A stretch of 64,000 nt of DNA from contig DXJV01000084.1 in the NCBI GenBank assembly GCA_019056785.1, forward strand, positions 127,489-191,488. Reading direction: 5' to 3'. The notes under the pieces were generated by a model, which ran no database searches, was not told the origin of the DNA, and saw nothing but the letters and a program-made list of their open reading frames with translations. Both the position numbers and the translations under genes were made by a program. Numbering within the stretch: position 1 is the stretch's first letter; the number at the start of each line of letters is the position of its first letter. This DNA comes from Candidatus Heimdallarchaeota archaeon. Its GTDB lineage: Archaea > Asgardarchaeota > Heimdallarchaeia > JABLTI01. Of this stretch, positions 53,422 through 53,683 are shown one piece after another.

Positions 53422-53550
53422 TTTTCTCTTTTTACGCCACCCAGCCGTTTTTTTAATATCAGTGTAGACATGGCGTCTAGCTCGACTATAAATCAACGTA
53501 ACTGCTTTTAAATTAAAATGGGGGGATGAAAATGAGGAGAGAGAATTTGG

Positions 53551-53683
53551 AGCACAGGGTGAGATTCGAATTCGTGCATGGAGAGAGTCCTTCCATGTCT
53601 CACGTAAAGCGGATAACTGCTCGCCCTTTCTGCGATTTCAGGGCGTTCTGCAGTCCGCCGCCCAACCACTAGACTACCTGTGC
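53551..53683 (-). tRNA. tRNA-Cys(GCA) with two introns (anticodon loop and T arm)
   Basis: The acceptor stem GCACAGG (53683-53677) pairs with CCTGTGC (53558-53552), with discriminator T at 53551 and no encoded CCA. The D arm reads GTAGTCTAGTGGTTGGGC. The anticodon stem GCGGA/TCCGC holds loop CTGCAG|A with anticodon GCA at 53651-53649. Between G37 and A38 lies a 33-nt intron (53647-53615): CTGC/GCAG forms the central 4 bp and CGCCC/GGGCG the intron helix of a bulge-helix-bulge. The T stem GTGAG/CTCAC and loop TTCGAAT are separated by a 28-nt second intron (53598-53571) with CGTG/CACG and CATGG/CCATG helices. Removing both gives a normal 72-nt tRNA-Cys. A TATA-like TTTAAAAAG lies near 53718-53727 upstream. 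Confidence 0.88.

What the first reader, a model, noticed from the sequence alone, without database searches (positions are those of the whole stretch)
53551..53683. tRNA-Cys with two introns, one in the T arm
The 133-nt gene folds into a standard 72-nt tRNA-Cys only if two segments are removed: 33 nt at the canonical 37/38 site and 28 nt at 53/54 between the T stem and T loop. Both borders show bulge-helix-bulge features (4-bp helices CTGC/GCAG and CGTG/CACG, with short bulges at the cuts). The outer helix of the second site is weak, suggesting a relaxed motif. Known background: multiple and non-canonical tRNA introns occur mainly in Thermoproteales and a few other archaea; a T-arm intron here would imply a broad-specificity splicing endonuclease.
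Basis: partly seen in the sequence, partly recalled or inferred. Interest (0 to 1): 0.8.

Follow-up and report, generated by a model that had tools for sequence, protein, structure and literature searches.

The report
Asgard tRNA-Cys gene with two introns
The only cysteine tRNA gene found in this Heimdallarchaeia-type Asgard genome is interrupted twice, once at the usual anticodon-loop site and once inside the T arm; close relatives that lack one or the other insert show exactly where each is cut out, and the T-arm type turns up in several tRNAs across Asgard archaea.

Summary
Confirmed. The gene lies on the minus strand (53683 to 53551, then an encoded CCA at 53550-53548). Removing 33 nt at 37/38 and 28 nt at 53/54 leaves a 72-nt tRNA-Cys(GCA) with a full cloverleaf. 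The host is a Heimdallarchaeota-type Asgard MAG. All nine same-genus genomes carry exactly one such tRNA-Cys. Seven have the T-arm insert; two lack it, one (G008) with precisely the predicted joined sequence. One (G001) lacks the anticodon insert at precisely the predicted junction. Across the seven T-arm introns the BHB core pairs in every sequence, with compensatory changes, including one between an exon T-stem base and an intron base. The outer helix is weak, so the motif is relaxed. The genome encodes a two-gene splicing endonuclease whose catalytic subunit carries the crenarchaea-specific-loop Lys-Pro-Lys tied to broad substrate range, plus RtcB ligase. It is a new member of a known kind: 53/54 introns are listed for archaeal tRNAs, and other Asgard classes are known to be intron-rich. 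Beyond the finding, the 53/54 junction signature occurs in 37 of 228 Asgard genomes (reversed-pattern control 0). Splicing itself was not observed; no RNA data were available.

The parts
53648..53683 (-). tRNA-Cys exon 1: acceptor 5' strand, D arm, anticodon stem 5' strand, loop 32-37 with anticodon GCA
   Evidence: conserved in congeners
53615..53647 (-). intron 1 (33 nt) at 37/38; BHB with outer helix GCGGA/TCCGC, central CTGC/GCAG, bulges AG^A and TT^A, inner CGCCCT/AGGGCG
   Evidence: absent exactly in G001 (L095: GCGGACTGCAGATCCGC)
53599..53614 (-). tRNA-Cys exon 2: base 38, anticodon stem 3' strand, variable loop TTTAC, T stem 5' strand GTGAG
53571..53598 (-). intron 2 (28 nt) at 53/54; central CGTG/CACG, bulges AG^A and AA^T, inner CATGGA/TCCATG, outer helix weak (3 of 5 pairs)
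   Evidence: absent exactly in G008 (L101: GTGAGTTCGAATCTCAC)
53551..53570 (-). tRNA-Cys exon 3: T loop TTCGAAT, T stem 3' strand CTCAC, acceptor 3' strand, discriminator T
53548..53550 (-). genome-encoded CCA end

Best explanation
This is a working single-copy tRNA-Cys(GCA) gene of a Heimdallarchaeia-type Asgard archaeon with two bulge-helix-bulge introns. The precursor folds so that the 3' end of each intron pairs with neighbouring exon bases: with bases 32-35 of the anticodon loop for intron 1, and with the variable-loop and T-stem bases CGTG for intron 2. Each fold presents two short bulges. A two-subunit (alpha-beta) splicing endonuclease of the broad-specificity kind cuts both bulges and RtcB joins the exons. 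The T-stem strand used in the second motif is then free to pair with its T-arm partner. Shown here: sequence, exact insert-free junctions in relatives, covariation, and presence of the enzyme genes. Inferred: cutting, joining, and any order of the two reactions.
For: Cloverleaf after removal. Same single gene in nine congeners; T-arm insert in seven, absent in two; anticodon insert absent in one, at the predicted junctions. BHB core pairs 100% over seven sequences, three pairs changed on both sides, 0 of 500 shuffles reach the covariation score. When the exon T stem is GCGAG, the intron end is CGCG instead of CACG. Endonuclease alpha (L031) matches A. pernix 3p1z at 3.4e-41, with K51-P52-K53 on K44-P45-R46 and the Tyr/His/Lys residues kept; beta (L032) lacks the His. 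RtcB present, E 1.2e-175. About 20 of 33 tRNA genes read in this genome carry inserts, including a second 53/54 insert in tRNA-Ala(UGC), L024.
Against: No RNA reads, so splicing is not observed. The BHB conformer of the T arm is 2.2 kcal/mol above the free minimum, in which the T stem closes around the intron hairpin. The outer helix of the second motif is weak. The MAG is incomplete, so another tRNA-Cys cannot be fully excluded.
Confidence: 0.93

Rival explanations
1. The locus is a decayed tRNA-Cys and the working copy lies in the missing part of the MAG.
For: The MAG is 82.5% complete and standard tools miss the gene.
Against: Exactly one tRNA-Cys in each of nine congeners, with conserved exons; inserts keep paired ends by compensatory change, which a decaying gene would not.
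Confidence: 0.03
2. Only the anticodon intron is removed; the T-arm segment stays as an enlarged T arm.
For: The free-energy minimum closes the T stem around the insert's own hairpin.
Against: Insert ends match BHB cut-site geometry and covary with the exon strand; G007 and G008 have normal T arms; a 35-nt T loop would be expected to disrupt the elbow and T-loop modification (established tRNA knowledge).
Confidence: 0.03
3. Assembly error or insertion of a small mobile element.
For: The window itself comes from a single MAG.
Against: Homologous inserts at the same site in separately assembled genomes and the same junction type in many Asgard tRNAs.
Confidence: 0.01

Closest known systems
Archaeal non-canonical tRNA introns at 53/54 (reviewed in PMC4090602)
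   Same: Same insertion position, BHB-type ends, co-occurrence of non-canonical and 37/38 introns in one gene.
   Different: Host is a Heimdallarchaeia-type Asgard archaeon; outer helix weak; clear presence/absence inside one genus.
Intron-rich tRNA sets of Atabeyarchaeia and Freyarchaeia (PMC11291895)
   Same: Asgard archaea with many non-canonical and multiple tRNA introns, some missed by standard scans.
   Different: Different classes; that paper reports 92-95% of tRNA genes with introns, here about 20 of 33 genes read; the passages seen do not name position 53/54.
(alpha-beta)2 splicing endonuclease of Aeropyrum pernix (3p1z, 3ajv; CSL discussed in PMC12397907)
   Same: Two-gene arrangement; CSL with Lys-Pro-basic residue; Tyr/His/Lys kept in alpha.
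   Different: Asgard sequence; activity and substrate range untested.

Membership tests
Archaeal BHB tRNA intron (relaxed forms included) | 4-bp central helix between exon and intron 3' end | tested here: met
   4 of 4 pairs at both introns; 100% of cells in seven T-arm introns
Archaeal BHB tRNA intron (relaxed forms included) | Short bulges holding the cut sites (3 nt in the standard motif) | tested here: met
   AG^A and AA^T at 53/54; AG^A and TT^A at 37/38 with an extra A opposite A
Archaeal BHB tRNA intron (relaxed forms included) | Removal restores a standard tRNA | tested here: met
   72-nt cloverleaf; insert-free genes in relatives
Archaeal BHB tRNA intron (relaxed forms included) | Splicing endonuclease and ligase in the genome | tested here: met
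   PF01974, two genes; RtcB
Archaeal BHB tRNA intron (relaxed forms included) | Spliced product in the cell | not testable with these tools
   no RNA data
Strict hBHBh' motif | Outer exon helix at the 53/54 intron | tested here: not met
   3-4 of 5 pairs, interrupted, in tRNA-Cys; 1 of 5 in tRNA-Ala
(alpha-beta)2 endonuclease with CSL | Separate catalytic and structural subunit genes | tested here: met
   L031 and L032; two genes in most of 57 class members
(alpha-beta)2 endonuclease with CSL | CSL Lys-Pro-Lys/Arg in alpha | tested here: met
   K51-P52-K53 aligned to K44-P45-R46 (PMC12397907)
(alpha-beta)2 endonuclease with CSL | Heterotetramer assembly and broad cleavage activity | not testable with these tools
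   needs purified protein

The most novel reading that the evidence does not exclude
The 53/54 T-arm intron is a stereotyped intron class of Asgard archaea (mostly 28-33 nt, ending GCGAA or ACGAA before TTCRAAT) that has spread among tRNA species, perhaps by copying between tRNA genes, and is lost precisely within genera, perhaps by conversion with cDNA of spliced tRNA.
Probability: 0.4. Interest if true: 0.55.

Novelty: new member of a known kind. Interest (0 to 1): 0.42.

Why it matters
A gene that standard finders miss is the only tRNA-Cys found in this lineage. Close relatives separately lack each of its two introns, which fixes the splice sites without RNA data. The T-arm introns also point to a phylum-wide set in the archaea closest to eukaryotes, so the proposed link between the endonuclease's specificity loop and intron spread becomes testable there.

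Tried and rejected
ARAGORN with introns allowed and Rfam at gathering score find nothing in the window. The first fold was of the wrong strand and is not used. A first version of the cloverleaf reader had too narrow a start range and was corrected. Weak Rfam matches were checked: C88:25233-25292 reads as AT-rich sequence, not a tRNA, while others were tRNAs with D-loop inserts. A tRNA-Cys upstream of the deoxyhypusine synthase gene was not found in L033-L035. The deoxyhypusine synthase tree requires two changes in T-arm intron state but does not settle one gain with losses against several gains. The excised introns show no obvious guide-RNA boxes by eye; this was not tested further.

Full report
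The gene. On the minus strand of the window, 53683 to 53551, lies a 133-nt tRNA-Cys(GCA) precursor followed by an encoded CCA at 53550-53548. Removing 33 nt after base 37 and 28 nt between bases 53 and 54 leaves a 72-nt tRNA whose four stems close. ARAGORN and Rfam at its gathering score miss it; Rfam's tRNA model aligns to exactly these ends at 26.9 bits, just below its cut-off of 29.

Splice motifs. Intron 1: outer helix GCGGA/TCCGC, central helix CTGC/GCAG, bulges AG^A and TT^A, inner helix CGCCCT/AGGGCG. Intron 2: central helix CGTG/CACG, bulges AG^A and AA^T, inner helix CATGGA/TCCATG, outer helix only 3 of 5 pairs. A 4-bp central helix with an inner helix of at least 6 bp arises in 5 of a million shuffles of the insert. 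The BHB conformer of the T arm lies 2.2 kcal/mol above the free minimum, so it is accessible. CGTG in the central helix includes the first three T-stem bases, so motif and T stem exclude each other until splicing (inference from the sequence).

Relatives. The neighbouring deoxyhypusine synthase gene is 81-86% identical to genes of Heimdallarchaeota MAGs. Nine genomes of the window's genus each hold exactly one tRNA-Cys of this type. The T-arm insert is present in G000 (28 nt), G001 and G003 (30), G002 and G006 (31), G004 and G005 (29). It is absent in G008, which reads GTGAGTTCGAATCTCAC, the exact predicted product, and in G007. The anticodon insert is absent only in G001, which reads GCGGACTGCAGATCCGC, again the exact product. 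The two inserts are therefore independent units with known ends.

Covariation. Over the seven T-arm introns all 56 cells of the eight BHB pairs are paired, three pairs are changed on both sides, and no shuffle of 500 reaches the covariation score. One of these pairs joins an exon T-stem base to an intron base: U-A in five, C-G in G004 and G005, whose T stem is GCGAG and whose intron ends CGCGAA. Sliding the partners gives at most 61% paired. Seven related sequences are few, so the counts reflect few independent events.

Gain and loss. In other families of the class the tRNA-Cys genes found have no T-arm insert (11 genes without any insert, one with an anticodon insert only). In a DNA tree of deoxyhypusine synthase, G007 (no insert) is sister to G006 and G002 (insert) at 100/100, and G008 (no insert) groups with G003 (insert) at 100/99; at least two changes are needed. 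One gain in the genus with two precise losses is the simplest reading; several gains are not excluded.

Machinery. The genome has two PF01974 genes. L031 (196 aa) matches the A. pernix catalytic subunit 3p1z at 3.4e-41; its K51-P52-K53 aligns to K44-P45-R46 of the crenarchaea-specific loop, and the Tyr, His and Lys residues are kept. L032 (207 aa) lacks the His and is most likely the structural subunit. PMC12397907 ties this loop to broad substrate range. Two such genes are the rule in the class. RtcB is present.

Wider pattern. About 20 of 33 tRNA genes read in this genome carry inserts: mostly in the anticodon loop, six in the D loop (Asn, Phe, three Gln, Ser), and two at 53/54 (Cys and Ala(UGC), L024); four genes carry two. 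The junction pattern CGCGAATTCRAATCYCG, built from these T-arm introns, is found in 37 of 228 Asgard genomes in 15 of 62 genera, against 0 for the reversed control. Of 30 loci read, 27 have a complete T stem and complete central helix around an insert of 29-33 nt, in tRNAs such as Thr, Lys, Ala and Cys. The pattern fixes the 3' end by construction, so only the 5' side, the lengths and the inner helices are independent evidence.

Known background. PMC4090602 lists 53/54 among archaeal non-canonical positions and PMC11291895 reports intron-laden tRNAs in Atabeyarchaeia and Freyarchaeia. I found no paper in the library describing these introns in Heimdallarchaeia, but most subscription papers are not held. 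The finding is thus a well-supported new member of a known kind.

Noticed in passing
L152-L181 (37 of 228 Asgard genomes): 53/54 T-arm introns with the same 3' junction recur in tRNA-Thr, -Lys, -Ala, -Cys and others across 15 Asgard genera; some introns look alike between different tRNA species.
   Followed up: partly
L024 1501-1637 (minus): tRNA-Ala(UGC) of the same genome also has two introns, 31 nt in the anticodon loop and 32 nt at 53/54.
   Followed up: yes
L027, L029, L030, L103, L104, L105: D-loop inserts of 27-59 nt in tRNA-Asn, -Gln (three genes), -Phe and -Ser of the same genome, two of them with a second anticodon-loop intron.
   Followed up: partly
L026 1501-1650 (minus): A long-variable-arm tRNA with a 67-nt insert whose isotype differs between ARAGORN (Ser CGA) and my reader (Leu CAA); possibly more than one intron.
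   Followed up: no
L098 and L101 (G003, G008): The anticodon introns of tRNA-Cys in these two species are identical while only one of them keeps the T-arm intron, pointing to a recent precise loss.
   Followed up: partly
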